64,000 bases of DNA from Actinomycetota bacterium (GTDB lineage Bacteria; Actinomycetota; Acidimicrobiia; IMCC26256; PALSA-610). Position numbers and translations under genes: made by a program. This document shows, in pieces, positions 5,873 to 11,067 of this stretch (position 1 is its first letter; the number at the start of each line of letters is the position of its first letter). The stretch lies in the NCBI GenBank assembly GCA_005773635.1, contig SXHN01000004.1, positions 62,001 through 126,000 of the forward strand, given 5' to 3'. Below the pieces are notes generated by a model that saw only the letters and a program-made list of their open reading frames with translations, was not told the origin of the DNA and did not search any database.

Positions 5873-6784
5873 GTGAGGTTTTCGTTAGGGTTGCCGGTCT
5901 CTGACGTGGAGCCGGTCGGGGAATTCGTAACCGGTGCAGCCGTGATGGAAATGTCGCGTCATGCTGAAGCCCTTGGATTTGGTGCCGTGTATGTCACGGA
6001 TCATCCAGCGGCAGATCAACGATGGCTGGACACAGGCGGACATCATGCGCTCGATCCGTTTGTGGCATTGTCATTTGCTGCGGCCGCGACGACGACACTG
6101 CGATTGCAAACGCACATACTTGTGCTCGCGTATCGGAATCCGTTACTAGCTGCAAAAAGTGTGTTGTCTCTCGATGTGCTTTCTGAAGGTCGGTTCACGC
6201 TTGGTGTTGCGGCTGGGTATCTCCGAAGCGAATTCAACGCCTTGGGAGTTGATTACGACGAACGTAATGAACTCACCGACGAAGCAATTGATGTGATCAA
6301 ACGCGTGATGAGCGAGGATTCTTTCGCGTTTGAGGGGCGGCATTTCCGGTCACGCGGTACAACGATGCGTCCGAAATCCGCGCAGCAGCCGCATCCACCG
6401 ATATGGGTTGGGGGGAATTCCACATCGGCGATTCGCCGAGCCGTTGAGACTGCGGATGGATGGTGTCCATTTCCGAATCCTGCCGCGGCGGCGGCTGCCA
6501 CACGCACGCCGCCACTCGAAACCATCGACGATTTCGCACTACGAGTCGAGATCGCTCGTCAACATGCAGATTCGATTGGGAGGGTAGTGCCGTTTGATAT
6601 CTGTTTTGCGCCGATTTCGCTCACGATGTTTGGTATTGGCAATTATGACGTGGCCCAGTTGCGTGACGAAATTGTTCAGCTAGAAGCGCTCGGAGTGACG
6701 TGGATGCCGGTTGAATTTCATGCCCCAACACGAGCTGAGTGGTGCGCGAAAGTTGAACGGTTCGCCCTCGACGTTCTGCCGTAG
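5873..6784 (+). CDS. LLM-class (luciferase-like) oxidoreductase, probably F420-dependent
   Basis: This belongs to the luciferase-like monooxygenase fold, whose actinobacterial members mostly use coenzyme F420. Visible family traits are RFSLGLP at the N-terminus, SRHAEALGFGAVYVTDHP, the block LDVLSEGRFTLGVAAGY and PPIWVGGNS. The frame is open back into the acyl-CoA dehydrogenase gene, to a TTG at 5777 and an ATG at 5816. I prefer GTG 5873, 17 nt after the upstream stop, because it places RFSLGLP at the N-terminus as in relatives. Its role beside the dehydrogenase is unknown; a redox step in the same catabolic pathway is an inference. Confidence 0.85.
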   Translation: MRFSLGLPVSDVEPVGEFVTGAAVMEMSRHAEALGFGAVYVTDHPAADQRWLDTGGHHALDPFVALSFAAAATTTLRLQTHILVLAYRNPLLAAKSVLSLDVLSEGRFTLGVAAGYLRSEFNALGVDYDERNELTDEAIDVIKRVMSEDSFAFEGRHFRSRGTTMRPKSAQQPHPPIWVGGNSTSAIRRAVETADGWCPFPNPAAAAAATRTPPLETIDDFALRVEIARQHADSIGRVVPFDICFAPISLTMFGIGNYDVAQLRDEIVQLEALGVTWMPVEFHAPTRAEWCAKVERFALDVLP

Positions 6785-6964
6785 CGCACGACGGGGCGCA
6801 CGGGCGTCGTGTGCCTGGACGAAGCGAATGGATAGTTCGAATGGCCTCATTCGTCCACAGGGACGGTTCCACCGTCAAGCTGAGGCGATTTTGTGTCGAC
6901 AAAGAAAGTGTCGGGCATTGGAATCAAGAATGCAATTCGCACTCGCCAAATGACAAGGATGTCC

Positions 6965-7507
6965 ATGAATCTTCGTAAACCACTCATTTTTTGCAGCGCT
7001 ATTGTGCTCGCAGTCGCGGCGTTTACCCCAAGCGCGACGGCTGACGTTGTTGTCAATGGCGGCACAGTCGACTTCGACCCGGCGGGCGCCCCGGCGATAG
7101 CCGACTTTTCCGCGGTGACCTTGAACGGCACGCCGCAGCTCACCAGCATCACGGTTAACCCATTTACGATCGTGGACGCGACCGGGTCCGCAGCGGGGTG
7201 GCACGTATTGCTGACCGTGGCCGACCTTGTTAACGCTGGAGCTGGAAATGACACGATTCTCGCTTCCAACATTTCAATGTCGGCACCGGTTGTCACCGCT
7301 GGCGGTGCGTCGAGCCTGACTGGTGTGACGGGCAATGCTTCGGCTGGTGGCTTTGCAGCTGGCGAAAAGATTGTGGTTGCCACCGCAGGCAACGGTCTCG
7401 GTACCTACTTGATCTCACCGCGGATCTTGAAATTGACGGTACCGGTCACCGCACGAACTGGTACCTACACAAGCGTCGCAACAATTGCTGTCGCCTCTGG
7501 CCCGTAA
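6965..7507 (+). CDS. Secreted WxL-like surface protein
   Basis: This is a small exported protein. The start at ATG 6965 is supported by AAGGA 5 nt upstream; an in-frame ATG also lies at 6959. A signal peptide (MNLRKPLIFCSAIVLAVAAF, cleavage near SATA-DVVV) leads a Gly/Ala/Thr-rich beta domain. GWHVLLTV, the two-strand spacing and the ending TGTYTSVATIAV resemble the WxL cell-wall-binding domain of Firmicutes, although the second Trp-x-Leu motif is not preserved. Its closest support is context: the next gene resembles DUF916, the usual genetic partner of WxL proteins. A non-covalent cell-envelope role is inferred. Confidence 0.6.
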   Translation: MNLRKPLIFCSAIVLAVAAFTPSATADVVVNGGTVDFDPAGAPAIADFSAVTLNGTPQLTSITVNPFTIVDATGSAAGWHVLLTVADLVNAGAGNDTILASNISMSAPVVTAGGASSLTGVTGNASAGGFAAGEKIVVATAGNGLGTYLISPRILKLTVPVTARTGTYTSVATIAVASGP

Positions 7508-7609
7508 TCAGGCTGGCCCTGCACGAAGTGGATCACCGTTAGTGGCGACCCACTCCGCCAGGTCACCCTCGGTGGCAACGTATTTCTTCGTCGTTGCTCA
7601 TATCTAAAA

Positions 7610-7656
7610 AACCTCGTTTCGGCCCTAGTGCGTAGCGCACTGGGGCCGATGAGGTT
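7610..7656. terminator. Long hairpin after the WxL-like gene
   Basis: AACCTC (7610-7615) pairs with GAGGTT (7651-7656). Inside it CGGCCCTAGTGCG pairs with CGCACTGGGGCCG around a 3-nt loop, with one wobble. There is no T-run on the plus side; an A-run lies on its left. It probably ends or attenuates the transcript between the first and second cassette genes. Confidence 0.5.
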
Positions 7657-7670
7657 GACAAGGGTTGTCA
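7656..7670. promoter_or_regulatory. Palindrome TGACAA-GGG-TTGTCA before the DUF916-like gene
   Basis: A perfect 6-bp inverted repeat with a 3-bp centre lies immediately after the hairpin and 57 bp before the next start codon. It overlaps a TTGACA hexamer at 7655-7660, but I see no good -10 box 16-18 bp further on. It could be a repressor operator or chance. Confidence 0.3.
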
Positions 7671-7726
7671 CCCGACCTCGGGCGCAATGAGAACTGATTC
7701 ACGAAGCCTGCGAAGAGACGATCATC

Positions 7727-8779
7727 ATGACGCGAATATCAGCATCTATGGGTTGCCTTGTCGCATTCGTCGGCGTAACGGCGGCGTCGTTGCTTGGGCA
7801 ACCGGCCGCGCAGGCTGCCCAAGGCACTGACGTGGTGAGCGCAGCGATGGCGCCAGGTTCGCAAAGCGATGACTCTGGTGCGTTTTTTCGGTTGGATCTC
7901 GCACCTGGCGCCAGCGTTGGTCAGTCGGTGGTGATCTCGAACCCGAATACCAAGCCCGTTTTGGTTGATATTTCCGGGGTTGACGCCTGGACCAGCACGA
8001 GCACCGGCGCCTCCTACGGTACGCCGGGTTCGAAACCCACCGGTACAGGTCGATGGATCACAGTGCGCGACCGTCAGATTCAACTTGCACCACGGGAGCA
8101 ACGAACGGTTGAGTTTCGTGTAGAGGTACCCAGCGACGCGGAGCCGGGGCAGCATCTCGGCGCAGTGAGCGTTTCAGTTCCAACTCAGGCCGACCAAGGC
8201 GCCACGCAGCGCGGCGCGGACCAAGCAGCATTCAACGTCGCTTTGCAAGCACAACGTGTAATTGCAGTACAAGTTGATATCGCGGGCGATCGATCGCCGA
8301 ATCTCCTCATTGGCGGTGCTCGTGCAGTTGCTCATGGAGACTCAATAGATGTCGAGCTTGCCATTGCGAATACCGGGAATGCCTTCGCGCGTGGTCGTGG
8401 AGTCTTGATGATTCCCGATACCTCATTTCGCTTCGAATTTCCGATCGATACCTTCGTGTCGAAGACTTCGATCAAGATGCTCATCCCATGGACGCGCACT
8501 GCACCGTTGGGCGAACACAAAGTTGAAGCAGTGCTGACGTACGACGACGGGAAGCGGGCCACCTGGTCGGGGGTCGTGAGCATCGACGAGGCCTTGCTCG
8601 ACGAGCTCGATGGGCAACTCACTCCCATCCAACCTATTGAGTCGGCTGCGTCGATGATCGGACTTAACGCCGTCACCATTGGTGGTGGAGCCGCCGGAAT
8701 GGCCGCTTGTAGTGCTTTGGCATTGCGGCTTCGGCGGCGGCGGAATCTTCTAGCGAACGGAGTACGCGTTCGCGACTAA
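7727..8779 (+). CDS. DUF916-like exported protein with C-terminal membrane anchor
   Basis: This is an exported protein of 350 residues. It has a signal peptide (1 to about 30, cleavage near AQA). An N-terminal beta domain follows with FFRLDLAPGASVGQSVVISN, VDAWTS and RWITVRDRQIQLAPREQRTVEF, features of the DUF916 (WxL-protein peptidoglycan-binding) family. A second Ig-like domain spans about 185-290. A C-terminal membrane helix (about 306-333) ends in RLRRRR, as expected for an inside anchor. In Firmicutes DUF916 proteins pair with WxL proteins in cell-surface clusters. Here the partners flank it: the WxL-like gene upstream and a membrane protein gene 6 nt downstream. Confidence 0.65.
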   Translation: MTRISASMGCLVAFVGVTAASLLGQPAAQAAQGTDVVSAAMAPGSQSDDSGAFFRLDLAPGASVGQSVVISNPNTKPVLVDISGVDAWTSTSTGASYGTPGSKPTGTGRWITVRDRQIQLAPREQRTVEFRVEVPSDAEPGQHLGAVSVSVPTQADQGATQRGADQAAFNVALQAQRVIAVQVDIAGDRSPNLLIGGARAVAHGDSIDVELAIANTGNAFARGRGVLMIPDTSFRFEFPIDTFVSKTSIKMLIPWTRTAPLGEHKVEAVLTYDDGKRATWSGVVSIDEALLDELDGQLTPIQPIESAASMIGLNAVTIGGGAAGMAACSALALRLRRRRNLLANGVRVRD

Positions 8780-8785
8780 TTGTTT

Positions 8786-10351
8786 ATGAACCGACTTGCC
8801 GCTGCGTTCGGGCTGACTGTGGCGTGCACAATTTTTGTGCCCGCGACAAACGTTGCTGGCGCGCGGACTGGCTCGGATTCTGTATCGATTGTTCTCTCGA
8901 CAGCCGACGGAAAGCCACTGGCCGTTGTGGCCGCGCCCGGCGGTCAAACAACGGTTGCCGCAGCGATGACGAATCGAGGCTCCGTCAATAGAACAGTTCG
9001 AGTGTCGGTCGACGGCGATGACCTATCGCGTCAATGGGCCACCGTTGCGAACACGATTGTCGAGATCGCTCCGGGCGAAACGAGCATCGTCAATGCCCGC
9101 GTTGTCGTGCCGTTAGAGGCGACCGCGGGCTCATACGAGTTGGTGATCGAAGCGCAGGTTGTAGACCAGTCGGAAGCGGCAGCATCGTTGCCATTGGGGA
9201 TTTCGGTTCCGGGCGATCCTCGAGCGGCGTTGCAAATTGCCGGGGTGCGTCTAGATCCGAAAACAAACTCTCGGCTGCTCATAGACGTACGCAATGACGG
9301 CGCGCTCAGTGTTGCAGCGAACGCTGAGGTGCGTATCGGCGAATCACTAGAAGTGAAACCCACTTCGGTCGCTGTTGTGGTTGCACCATCGGCCACGCAA
9401 CAGGTCGCGGTGACGTTGGCCCAGCCGCTCAAGTTGCCTGCGAAGGTTTCAATAGAACTGCGATATGGCCCCGATACTGCACACTGGTCGAGCACGTTGC
9501 GACCGCCTACCGAGGTCCGTAGTCGCACGATCGCCACGACGAGCGCATCTCCGGAGCCCACGATTACTGAGGCCGCGCGTTCTGCTGGTATTCAACCTGC
9601 AGTCGTGTTGCTCGCACTGTTGGTCGGAGCAGCAGTGGTGTGGCTCATCGTCGAGTTGCTGGCATCGAAACGGGGCCCGTCGGCCGACGGCCGTTCGGTG
9701 TCGTCTGCGGGCGCCGATGGACCGAATTTCATGGCGGTGGCCGACGCACTCGGGGCGCAACTTGCACCACTCGTCGCCGCGATTGAGCAACTGGCCTCGG
9801 CATTTGTCGAACGAGAAATCCCGCCGATACAGATGTCGGAGCCTGCAGTGCCAAGTAATGCCGCCGTAGTCAACGTCGCGCTAATCGAGGAGTCCAAGGT
9901 GATATCGAATCCTGACGGGTATTTCGCAGATGAGGTGTATGCCACCGCGTCGCTCGTTGAACCAGTGCCGTTGGTGGAACGGCTCGATGGCATGACGGCG
10001 ACAGCGACGGGCCACGATGGCGTACAAGCACTGTCGGATATTGAGTCGGCGACCCTGTTCGTGCGGGAGGCTTATCTGCGACCGGAAATTGCTGTGGAAA
10101 CCCGGGAGGCAATCGAAGCTCAACTCGTTGCCGACGACGCGCATCATCGTGCGGAACTCATAGAAGCAGTTGCCTCGGGACTCGGTATCCCGAAGTCAAT
10201 CTTGTTGGAATGGATGCCCGATGAGGTGTTCGATCGGACGGAAATCGCGGCCACGCAGGTCGACGTGACGGCGATTCAACGGGAGAATCGGGTCCTTGAA
10301 CTACAGGTCGCGATACTGAAGCGGGCGGTTGCACACTTCGCTCGTCACTAG
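8786..10351 (+). CDS. Exported Ig-like membrane protein with cytoplasmic C-terminal domain, third cassette gene
   Basis: I do not recognise this as a named family. The ATG at 8786 follows the DUF916-like stop by 6 nt. It has a signal peptide (about 1-27) and two Ig-like or NEW3-like extracytoplasmic domains with IAPGETSIVNARVVVP. A single membrane helix (about 271-293, PAVVLLALLVGAAVVW) follows. The cytoplasmic tail is about 228 residues, has an Ala-rich segment, and ends in a predicted coiled coil (QRENRVLELQVAILKRAVAH). The arrangement looks like a link between a surface assembly and the cytoplasm. Function is unknown; membership of the WxL/DUF916-like cassette is inferred from spacing and shared domain style. 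Confidence 0.6.
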   Translation: MNRLAAAFGLTVACTIFVPATNVAGARTGSDSVSIVLSTADGKPLAVVAAPGGQTTVAAAMTNRGSVNRTVRVSVDGDDLSRQWATVANTIVEIAPGETSIVNARVVVPLEATAGSYELVIEAQVVDQSEAAASLPLGISVPGDPRAALQIAGVRLDPKTNSRLLIDVRNDGALSVAANAEVRIGESLEVKPTSVAVVVAPSATQQVAVTLAQPLKLPAKVSIELRYGPDTAHWSSTLRPPTEVRSRTIATTSASPEPTITEAARSAGIQPAVVLLALLVGAAVVWLIVELLASKRGPSADGRSVSSAGADGPNFMAVADALGAQLAPLVAAIEQLASAFVEREIPPIQMSEPAVPSNAAVVNVALIEESKVISNPDGYFADEVYATASLVEPVPLVERLDGMTATATGHDGVQALSDIESATLFVREAYLRPEIAVETREAIEAQLVADDAHHRAELIEAVASGLGIPKSILLEWMPDEVFDRTEIAATQVDVTAIQRENRVLELQVAILKRAVAHFARH

Positions 10352-10371
10352 TGGCGCACTTCGCCGACTCG

Positions 10372-11067
10372 TTATCGCAAAAGATGTTGGAACAGTGCGA
10401 GATGCTGCTGTTCGTGACGTAGCAACTCTGGATGCCACTGCACGGCGTTCACGTTGGCTGCTCCGATAATTTCGATGGCCTCGACGTGACCGTCTTCGTT
10501 GTGTGCGGTTGCTCGTGTTGCGTTACCGAGGCGATCGATGACCTGATGGTGCAGCGTATTGACGCCTATTTCGTTGACGCCCAGAATCGACGCGAGCTGT
10601 GAATCGCTATCGATGTACACCTTGTGCACATGTTGGTTGTAAGCGTCCAGGCGCATATGAGTGTCGACGTGCTGTGTGAGGGTGCCGCCGAGTGCGACGT
10701 TCAATACCTGAATACCACGGCATACTCCGAGCGTCGGGAAATTACGCGCCACTGCGGCCTGTGCGAACGCGATGTCTGCGCGGTCGCGTTCAATGTTGGT
10801 TGCTCCTAGTTCGGGTTCGGGCATGGCTCCGTAACTCGATGGATCGACATCACAGCCGCCGGTAATTACCAAAGCGTCGACACAGTCGAGCAGTAGGTCA
10901 ACATCGGACGCATCGACCGACGGGAGTATCAACGGAATGCCACCCGCTCTTTGTACTGCTTTGACGTAGGGCGTTGCCGCTACGAAATGCAGCAACTTGT
11001 CGCCATCGGAGTCGGAAAAGAGCTCCTGGTGTGCCACAATCCCAACCCGTTTTCGTCGTGTCGTCAT
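10372..11067 (-). CDS. Gamma-glutamyl-gamma-aminobutyrate hydrolase-like class I glutamine amidotransferase (PuuD type)
   Basis: This probably hydrolyses a gamma-glutamyl amide such as gamma-glutamyl-GABA. Class I amidotransferase features are present: the oxyanion/nucleophile block TLGVCRGIQ with the catalytic Cys, ITGGCDVDP upstream, and QWHPE carrying the catalytic His-Glu. The ATG at 11067 lies 7 nt after the stop of the glutamine-synthetase-like gene, whose product would make the gamma-glutamyl adduct. That pairing is the Puu polyamine pathway logic. The frame extends to a TTG at 11082 inside the upstream gene, which I reject. Confidence 0.85.
   Translation of the reverse strand: MTTRRKRVGIVAHQELFSDSDGDKLLHFVAATPYVKAVQRAGGIPLILPSVDASDVDLLLDCVDALVITGGCDVDPSSYGAMPEPELGATNIERDRADIAFAQAAVARNFPTLGVCRGIQVLNVALGGTLTQHVDTHMRLDAYNQHVHKVYIDSDSQLASILGVNEIGVNTLHHQVIDRLGNATRATAHNEDGHVEAIEIIGAANVNAVQWHPELLRHEQQHLALFQHLLR

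What the first reader, a model, noticed from the sequence alone, without database searches (positions are those of the whole stretch)
6965..10351. WxL/DUF916-like surface cassette outside Firmicutes
A secreted WxL-like protein is followed by a DUF916-like anchored protein, then a membrane protein with an Ig-like outside and a coiled-coil cytoplasmic tail. Seen: signal peptides, anchor helices, tight spacing and DUF916-type strands. Known: WxL plus DUF916 proteins form cell-surface (csc) clusters in low-GC Gram-positives. Inference: this is a diverged actinobacterial version whose third protein may carry a signal across the membrane.
Basis: partly seen in the sequence, partly recalled or inferred. 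Interest (0 to 1): 0.62.

Follow-up and report, generated by a model that had tools for sequence, protein, structure and literature searches.

The report
WxL surface cassette with membrane-spanning partner
An uncultured actinobacterium carries a small cell-wall protein and two related membrane-anchored holder proteins of a kind known from lactic acid bacteria, and the second holder has gained a conserved inner tail that may let the cell sense its own surface.

Summary
Gene A (6965-7507) encodes a secreted, diverged WxL-domain protein. Gene B (7727-8779) encodes a DUF916/WxLIP protein (PF06030, E=9e-14, above cut-off). Gene C (8786-10351) is not just "Ig-like": it is a second, diverged WxLIP. 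Profile-profile comparison with B gives 99.5%, and its model's best PDB match is Enterococcus faecium WxLIP. A transmembrane helix and a cytoplasmic tail of about 225 residues follow.

The three genes stay together in all five genomes that carry C, all from one family. A-B pairs are far wider: they occur across Actinomycetota, Chloroflexota and Bacillota, so presence outside Firmicutes is not itself surprising.

New points:
- In place of the large WxL protein, this family has a paralogous WxLIP with a cytoplasmic tail whose end is better conserved than its outside.
- In the window's genus that tail resembles the helix-turn-helix plus zipper of IS3 OrfA.
- A distant WxLIP is fused, behind its transmembrane helix, to an apparently intact receiver domain. 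This places WxLIP helices in the bacterial membrane, against a published host-membrane proposal.
- A strong RNA hairpin follows WxL genes in about half of the junctions tested, in several phyla.

Signalling is plausible but not shown.

The parts
6965..7507 (+). Gene A: secreted small WxL-domain protein, 180 aa (signal peptide about residues 1-26)
7196..7207 (+). First WxL motif, G78-W79-H80-V81 (WxV); the Trp is kept in almost all relatives
7478..7486 (+). Position of the second WxL motif, A172-T173-I174: the Trp is lost here and in all 7 sequences from this family; 25 of about 142 sequences keep it
7610..7656 (+). Strong GC-rich RNA hairpin between A and B, no U-tract
7727..8779 (+). Gene B: WxLIP (DUF916-type) protein, 350 aa: signal peptide, PGBD, HBD-like domain, TM helix, RLRRRR
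7844..8176 (+). PF06030 (WxLIP_PGBD) match in B
8663..8725 (+). C-terminal transmembrane helix of B (approximate)
   Evidence: sequence
8786..10351 (+). Gene C: second WxLIP paralogue with long cytoplasmic tail, 521 aa (alternative TTG start at 8780, directly after B's stop)
8870..9505 (+). C ectodomain: two Ig-like domains, WxLIP fold
9596..9670 (+). Transmembrane helix of C (residues 271-295 of the model)
9728..9811 (+). Juxtamembrane cytoplasmic helix (coiled-coil-like), conserved pattern L..Q...L...I..L in all five C proteins
10124..10333 (+). C-terminal cytoplasmic segment resembling the HTH and leucine zipper of IS3-family OrfA; best-conserved part of C within the genus

Best explanation
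This is a WxL/WxLIP cell-surface complex with an altered third component. A is secreted and lies in the cell wall. B holds A, as Enterococcus WxLIPs hold WxL domains, and is anchored in the bacterium's own membrane by its C-terminal helix. C is a second WxLIP made together with B. It has shed loops of its WxLIP domain and carries a cytoplasmic tail with a juxtamembrane helix and a conserved C-terminal helical module. I propose that C sits beside B/A outside and couples the state of the wall complex (occupied, pulled or missing) to a cytoplasmic partner or to DNA. The hairpin after A is proposed to give more A than B and C, as expected for a wall protein held by fewer anchors. Shown: homology of all three proteins, gene order, tail conservation, hairpin. 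Inferred: binding of A by B, the B-C partnership, excess of A, cytoplasmic output.
For: B is PF06030 above cut-off, and a profile of its relatives finds the E. faecium WxLIP crystal chains at E=7e-9; PDB entry 9i25 is titled as that WxLIP bound to a long WxL. C is a WxLIP paralogue: HHalign with B 99.5%, E=3.9e-23 over both Ig-like domains; top PDB match 9i25_C/9i1y (Foldseek E=1.4e-10; VIA Z 13.8); a C profile finds B proteins at E down to 1e-20. C proteins form one clade (support 0.994) and lie directly behind B in all five genomes that have them. G000 and G001 have a single WxL gene, so nothing here plays the large WxL. Within the genus, C's last 80 residues are 55-58% and its juxtamembrane helix 48% identical, against 28-35% outside. 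WxLIP helices span the bacterial membrane: WxLIP L025 continues after TM+RRRRRR into a receiver domain (E=1.2e-21) with D-D, D, S and K residues visible in its sequence; L071 has a GGDEF-like tail. Hairpin z<-3 in 31 of 57 WxL>WxLIP junctions, against 6 of 55, 3 of 57 and 0 of 57 in control regions.
Against: No binding, localisation or signalling was measured. C's tail has no recognised Pfam domain and its model there is of low confidence. Tails of C differ between genera. The receiver fusion is in one MAG contig, and a congener (L028) does not keep a readable receiver domain. Most WxLIPs have short basic tails. C's loop-poor WxLIP domain may not bind WxL at all.
Confidence: 0.5

Rival explanations
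1. Purely structural: C is a second anchor, and its cytoplasmic tail only helps to cluster or position the complex (for example by coiled-coil pairing or by binding a division or cytoskeletal protein). No information is passed inward.
For: Juxtamembrane coiled-coil-like helix conserved in all five C proteins; tails otherwise vary in length and are rich in P, A and E in other genera; most WxLIPs lack cytoplasmic domains.
Against: The far C-terminal end is the best-conserved part within the genus and carries HTH-like sequence, more than a clustering device needs; receiver and GGDEF-like domains occur on other WxLIPs.
Confidence: 0.35
2. C's tail has a domesticated IS3 OrfA HTH-zipper and acts as a membrane-tethered or proteolytically released DNA-binding regulator (a ToxR-like or regulated-proteolysis design).
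For: A profile of 31 OrfA sequences ranks the window's C first of 4,624 ORFs (E=1.9e-5) and its congener second (E=0.078); 0 of 2,000 shuffles reach either score; in a blind protein search with the tail, three of the four non-self, non-congener hits were IS3 OrfA-type (L035 and L037 read directly; L034 a degenerate copy beside an OrfB).
Against: The hypothesis was chosen after seeing the resemblance; the second match is not significant alone; PF01527, NCBIfam and PHROGs do not hit the tail; the first OrfA helix is missing; related genera have a non-OrfA helix ending in the same WM(D)xE position.
Confidence: 0.25
3. The A-B hairpin is a plain transcription terminator: A is a separate transcript and only B-C are an operon. 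Its recurrence reflects ordinary termination after highly expressed WxL genes.
For: GC-rich perfect stems; also found after WxL genes that precede another WxL gene, 7 of 15, but rarely after WxLIP, 1 of 6.
Against: The terminator scan found no U-tract terminator in the region; A and B are kept adjacent despite the hairpin in many phyla.
Confidence: 0.45
4. A is not a WxL protein but an unrelated beta-sandwich; the resemblance is compositional.
For: A alone is below the Pfam cut-off, lacks the second Trp, and Foldseek gives no significant PDB match (best E=6.5e-3, to GH123 N-terminal domains).
Against: 36-38% identity, over about 135 residues or more, to Oceanobacillus and other Bacillaceae proteins that hit PF13731 above cut-off; next to a WxLIP almost everywhere; first motif and C-terminal GP conserved.
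Confidence: 0.04

Closest known systems
csc / WxL clusters of Lactobacillales and Bacillales (CscA = DUF916, CscB = small WxL, CscC = large WxL, CscD = LPxTG; Siezen 2006 PMC1534035; Hassan 2022 PMC9772566, 2023 PMC10599100)
   Same: Adjacent genes for a small secreted WxL protein and a WxLIP with PGBD, second Ig-like domain and C-terminal TM; all proteins exported.
   Different: No large WxL and no LPxTG protein; one WxL and two WxLIPs; the second WxLIP has a long cytoplasmic tail; strong hairpin between WxL and WxLIP; second WxL Trp lost.
Enterococcus faecium WxLIP1 crystal structures (PDB 9i1y; 9i25, titled as bound to long WxL)
   Same: Best solved-structure match for B by sequence profile and for C by fold.
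   Different: E. faecium WxLIP1 was solved without any cytoplasmic domain; C has lost loop segments of the PGBD and of the stretch before the second domain.
WxL-WxLIP-large WxL clusters of Thermoleophilia and Acidimicrobiia
   Same: Actinomycetota versions with small WxL followed by WxLIP.
   Different: They keep the large WxL protein and the second Trp motif; the window's family has C instead.
Membrane-tethered one-component regulators (ToxR/CadC type; own knowledge, not tested)
   Same: Exported domain, one TM, cytoplasmic HTH-like segment.
   Different: Topology is reversed (cytoplasmic part at the C-terminus) and the HTH is only weakly supported.

Membership tests
WxL domain (PF13731) | Profile match above curated cut-off | tested here: not met
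   A alone: E=0.0058, 17.1 bits against 25. Relatives in the same alignment reach 2.4e-7.
WxL domain (PF13731) | Homology to accepted members through intermediates | tested here: met
   A-profile search; Bacillota hits 36-38% identical to A that score E 4e-12 and 4e-11 in PF13731.
WxL domain (PF13731) | Two Trp-x-Leu motifs | tested here: not met
   First motif W79-x-V present; second position is A172-T-I. The same holds for all 7 sequences of this family and for the Bacillaceae sampled.
WxLIP (DUF916-DUF3324-TM), protein B | PGBD (PF06030) | tested here: met
   E=9e-14, 52 bits against 27.3.
WxLIP (DUF916-DUF3324-TM), protein B | Second domain, HBD (PF11797) | tested here: inconclusive
   No PF11797 hit in B at E up to 1, but the whole of B aligns with WxLIPs that do hit it (L045, E=3.8e-17).
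WxLIP (DUF916-DUF3324-TM), protein B | Signal peptide and C-terminal TM | tested here: met
   Hydrophobicity and sequence.
WxLIP, protein C | Two-domain WxLIP fold | tested here: met
   HHalign 99.5% with B over both domains; Foldseek rank 1 = WxLIP; VIA Z 13.8.
WxLIP, protein C | PF06030 match above cut-off | tested here: not met
   No PF06030 match for C at E up to 1.
[quoted passage not shown]
   Only one WxL gene in the genome.
csc cluster (Siezen 2006) | Large WxL (CscC) and LPxTG (CscD) members | tested here: not met
   None among A, B, C or the adjacent genes; no LPxTG motif in A, B or C.
csc / WxL complex | Physical binding of WxL by WxLIP | not testable with these tools
   No complex prediction or experiment available.
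IS3 OrfA HTH-zipper (PF01527), tail of C | PF01527 match | tested here: not met
   No Pfam hit on the tail at E up to 5.
IS3 OrfA HTH-zipper (PF01527), tail of C | Similarity to a local OrfA profile beyond chance | tested here: met
   E=1.9e-5 in 4,624 ORFs; 0 of 2,000 shuffles. Post hoc hypothesis.

The most novel reading that the evidence does not exclude
WxL-WxLIP complexes are a bacterial wall-sensing module. The WxLIP reads the state of a WxL protein in the wall and passes it through its own membrane helix to cytoplasmic outputs that have been attached repeatedly: a transposase-derived HTH-zipper in C, a receiver domain in L025, and a GGDEF-like domain in L071. In this Acidimicrobiia-like family a dedicated WxLIP paralogue has taken over that task.
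Probability: 0.27. Interest if true: 0.78.

Novelty: new variant of a known kind. Interest (0 to 1): 0.5.

Why it matters
WxL/WxLIP complexes are described almost only from gut-associated and food Firmicutes and are read as host-adhesion platforms; the published model even places the WxLIP membrane helix in the host membrane. Here the complex is found in environmental Actinomycetota and Chloroflexota. WxLIPs that continue behind the helix into cytoplasmic domains argue that the helix sits in the bacterium's own membrane. C makes the question 'is a WxL complex only an anchor, or also a sensor?' directly testable. The recurrent hairpin after WxL genes is a simple, testable clue to unequal expression of clients and holders.

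Tried and rejected
The fold model of A against PDB gave no significant match (best E 6.5e-3, GH123 N-terminal domains), VIA Z at most 6.3: uninformative, so A rests on sequence. An A-profile search of PDB sequences found nothing relevant. Rfam: no family in 6500-10900. U-tract terminators: none. The C tail against Pfam, NCBIfam and PHROGs: nothing. The HTH_Tnp_1 hit (residues 244-275, E=0.027) lies in the extracellular linker and was rejected as chance. A receiver domain in the congener L028 was looked for and not found readable.
Full report
WHAT IS THERE. The window lies in a 3.56-Mb draft genome, G000 C25:62001-126000. It belongs with Actinomycetota MAGs; named relatives found through A include an 'Acidimicrobiia bacterium' and several 'Actinomycetes bacterium' MAGs. 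Three + strand genes are confirmed: A 6965-7507, B 7727-8779, C 8786 (or 8780)-10351. B and C abut; A and B are 219 nt apart.

PROTEIN B is a WxLIP. PF06030 matches at E=9e-14, above the curated cut-off; it is the genome's only match. A profile of B and seven relatives finds the E. faecium WxLIP1 crystal chains at E=7e-9. The protein has a signal peptide, a PGBD, a second Ig-like domain, a TM helix and RLRRRR.

PROTEIN A is a diverged WxL protein. Alone it is below the Pfam cut-off (E=0.0058). Ten of 13 aligned relatives match PF13731, and a genome-collection scan with A's alignment returned 55 loci. These include Bacillaceae proteins 36-38% identical to A, two of which score 4e-12 and 4e-11 in PF13731. 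The first Trp motif is kept (GWHV); the second is A-T-I instead of W-x-L. In a family alignment of about 142 rows the first Trp is nearly universal and the second is kept in 25, none of them in this family or in the sampled Bacillota. Loss of the second Trp is therefore common and does not disqualify A.

PROTEIN C is a second WxLIP. Its profile aligns with B's over both Ig-like domains (HHalign 99.5%, E=3.9e-23). C proteins from three relatives individually score 1e-16 to 1e-22 with B's profile, L019's 3e-11, and 1,000 shuffled sequences none; the window's C itself did not score alone. The C profile finds B proteins at E down to 1e-20. The AlphaFold2 model (ectodomain pLDDT about 60-87, tail low) has E. 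faecium WxLIP as top PDB match in two programs (Foldseek E=1.4e-10; VIA Z 13.8; large rmsd because the domain angle differs). C proteins are one clade (support 0.994) separate from B; where that clade joins is unresolved. In C the loop that in B reads TSTSTGASYGTPGSKPTGTGRW is reduced to DDLSRQW. Whether that is the strand which enters WxL in the Enterococcus model (PMC10599100) could not be checked.

NEIGHBOURHOOD. Of 61 relatives searched, 13 have a B homologue. In the window's family, five genomes (G000, G001, G003, G008, G009) have A-B-C in order. G006 has A-B at a contig end plus another A-B pair without C. Among 395 genomes of the class the full-length C occurs only in those five; G013 has only a weak tail-like fragment. 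G016 has two A-B pairs. More distant Acidimicrobiia and Thermoleophilia keep the classical small WxL - WxLIP - large WxL order (for example L026, L060, L083, L091). PF06030 occurs in 33 of 396 sampled Actinomycetota genomes. In the 40 loci fetched from that unbiased set most WxLIPs have a WxL gene next to them. WxL genes: one in G000 and in G001; two in G003 and G008.

CYTOPLASMIC TAIL. Behind C's TM lie a helix with a conserved L..Q...L...I..L pattern in all five C proteins, a variable linker and a C-terminal segment. Between G000 and G001, identity is 28-35% in the ectodomain (the signal-peptide block is higher), 48% at the juxtamembrane helix and 55-58% over the last 80 residues. The last segment resembles IS3 OrfA: a tail search of 58 genomes gave four weak non-self, non-congener hits, of which two are clear OrfA ORFs and one a degenerate IS3 copy beside an OrfB. 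A profile of 31 OrfA proteins, built from loci and those hits, ranks the window's C first of 4,624 ORFs (E=1.9e-5; congener second, E=0.078), and no shuffle of 2,000 reaches the score. The idea was formed after seeing the sequence, curated models do not see it, and other genera have a different helix at the same place, so I hold it at about one in four.

OTHER WxLIPs WITH INSIDE DOMAINS. L025 (contig JAUZEY010000449.1, also L065): a 495-aa WxLIP continues behind TM+RRRRRR into a receiver domain (PF00072, E=1.2e-21) with the acidic pair, phospho-acceptor Asp, Ser and Lys visible. Its neighbours include an OmpR-type regulator, a PAS-LuxR protein and a PAS-GGDEF-EAL protein. L071 has a degenerate GGDEF-like tail (E=0.009). 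Such tails are the exception. They place the WxLIP helix in the bacterium's own membrane, against the proposal in PMC10599100 that it enters the host membrane.

HAIRPIN. The A-B gap holds a long, nearly perfect hairpin at 7610-7656 (149-nt fold -69.6 kcal/mol, z=-5.75), without a U-tract. Two of the nearest relatives keep its base with compensating changes inside; others in the family have unrelated but equally strong hairpins. Across all fetched loci, 31 of 57 WxL>WxLIP junctions have z<-3, against 6 of 55 downstream of WxLIP, 3 of 57 upstream of WxL and 0 of 57 inside WxLIP. A second run gave 29 of 54, with 7 of 15 for WxL>WxL and 1 of 6 for WxLIP>WxL. The hairpin thus follows WxL genes. Siezen 2006 describes intergenic gaps within csc clusters as mostly under 100 nt and without predicted terminators (PMC1534035); I found no earlier description of such a hairpin in the papers read.

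MECHANISM. Best reading: A in the wall, held by B; C co-translated with B, sharing its fold, spanning the membrane, with a conserved inner module that either transmits or anchors. The hairpin should make A more abundant. Homology, order, tail conservation and hairpin are shown; binding, stoichiometry and output are inferred.

JUDGEMENT. 'Outside Firmicutes' is already implicit in databases and in PMC9772566. Searches of the held literature for DUF916, and for WxL with Acidimicrobiia, Chloroflexi or Actinobacteria, found no description of these non-Firmicutes clusters; the library is open-access only.

Noticed in passing
L025:3508-4992 (same contig as L065, JAUZEY010000449.1): WxLIP fused behind its TM helix to an apparently intact response-regulator receiver domain, amid OmpR-type, PAS-LuxR and PAS-GGDEF-EAL genes.
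   Followed up: partly
L071:1826-3241 (VAWK01000045.1): WxLIP with a degenerate GGDEF-like cytoplasmic tail, between a small and a larger WxL protein.
   Followed up: partly
L126:4823-6343: WxLIP with a long cytoplasmic tail of helical and Lys/Arg/Pro-rich sequence, function unknown.
   Followed up: no
L086:1122-2555: WxLIP with a tail of about 127 residues that looks like a small folded domain, no Pfam match.
   Followed up: no
L192 (G008:C90) and L193 (G003:C107): Second WxL genes away from the cassette in genomes of the same family; for the G008 copy (also L040) no WxLIP was found beside it. Possibly extra clients.
   Followed up: no
L026:2752-3474; model of A: WxL domains show weak similarity to the N-terminal beta-sandwich of GH123 glycosidases by sequence (PF22680, E=0.005) and by fold (Foldseek E=6.5e-3).
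   Followed up: no
L047:6743-11737 and L100:2-4693: Very large WxL proteins (about 1,560-1,660 aa) beside a WxLIP; L047 is from a Thermoleophilia MAG.
   Followed up: no
control: Thermotoga maritima, a diderm outside Bacillota, has a PF06030 match over the cut-off.
   Followed up: no
L034 (from G007:C25, around 21.5 kb): Degenerate IS3-type element: broken OrfA next to an OrfB.
   Followed up: no
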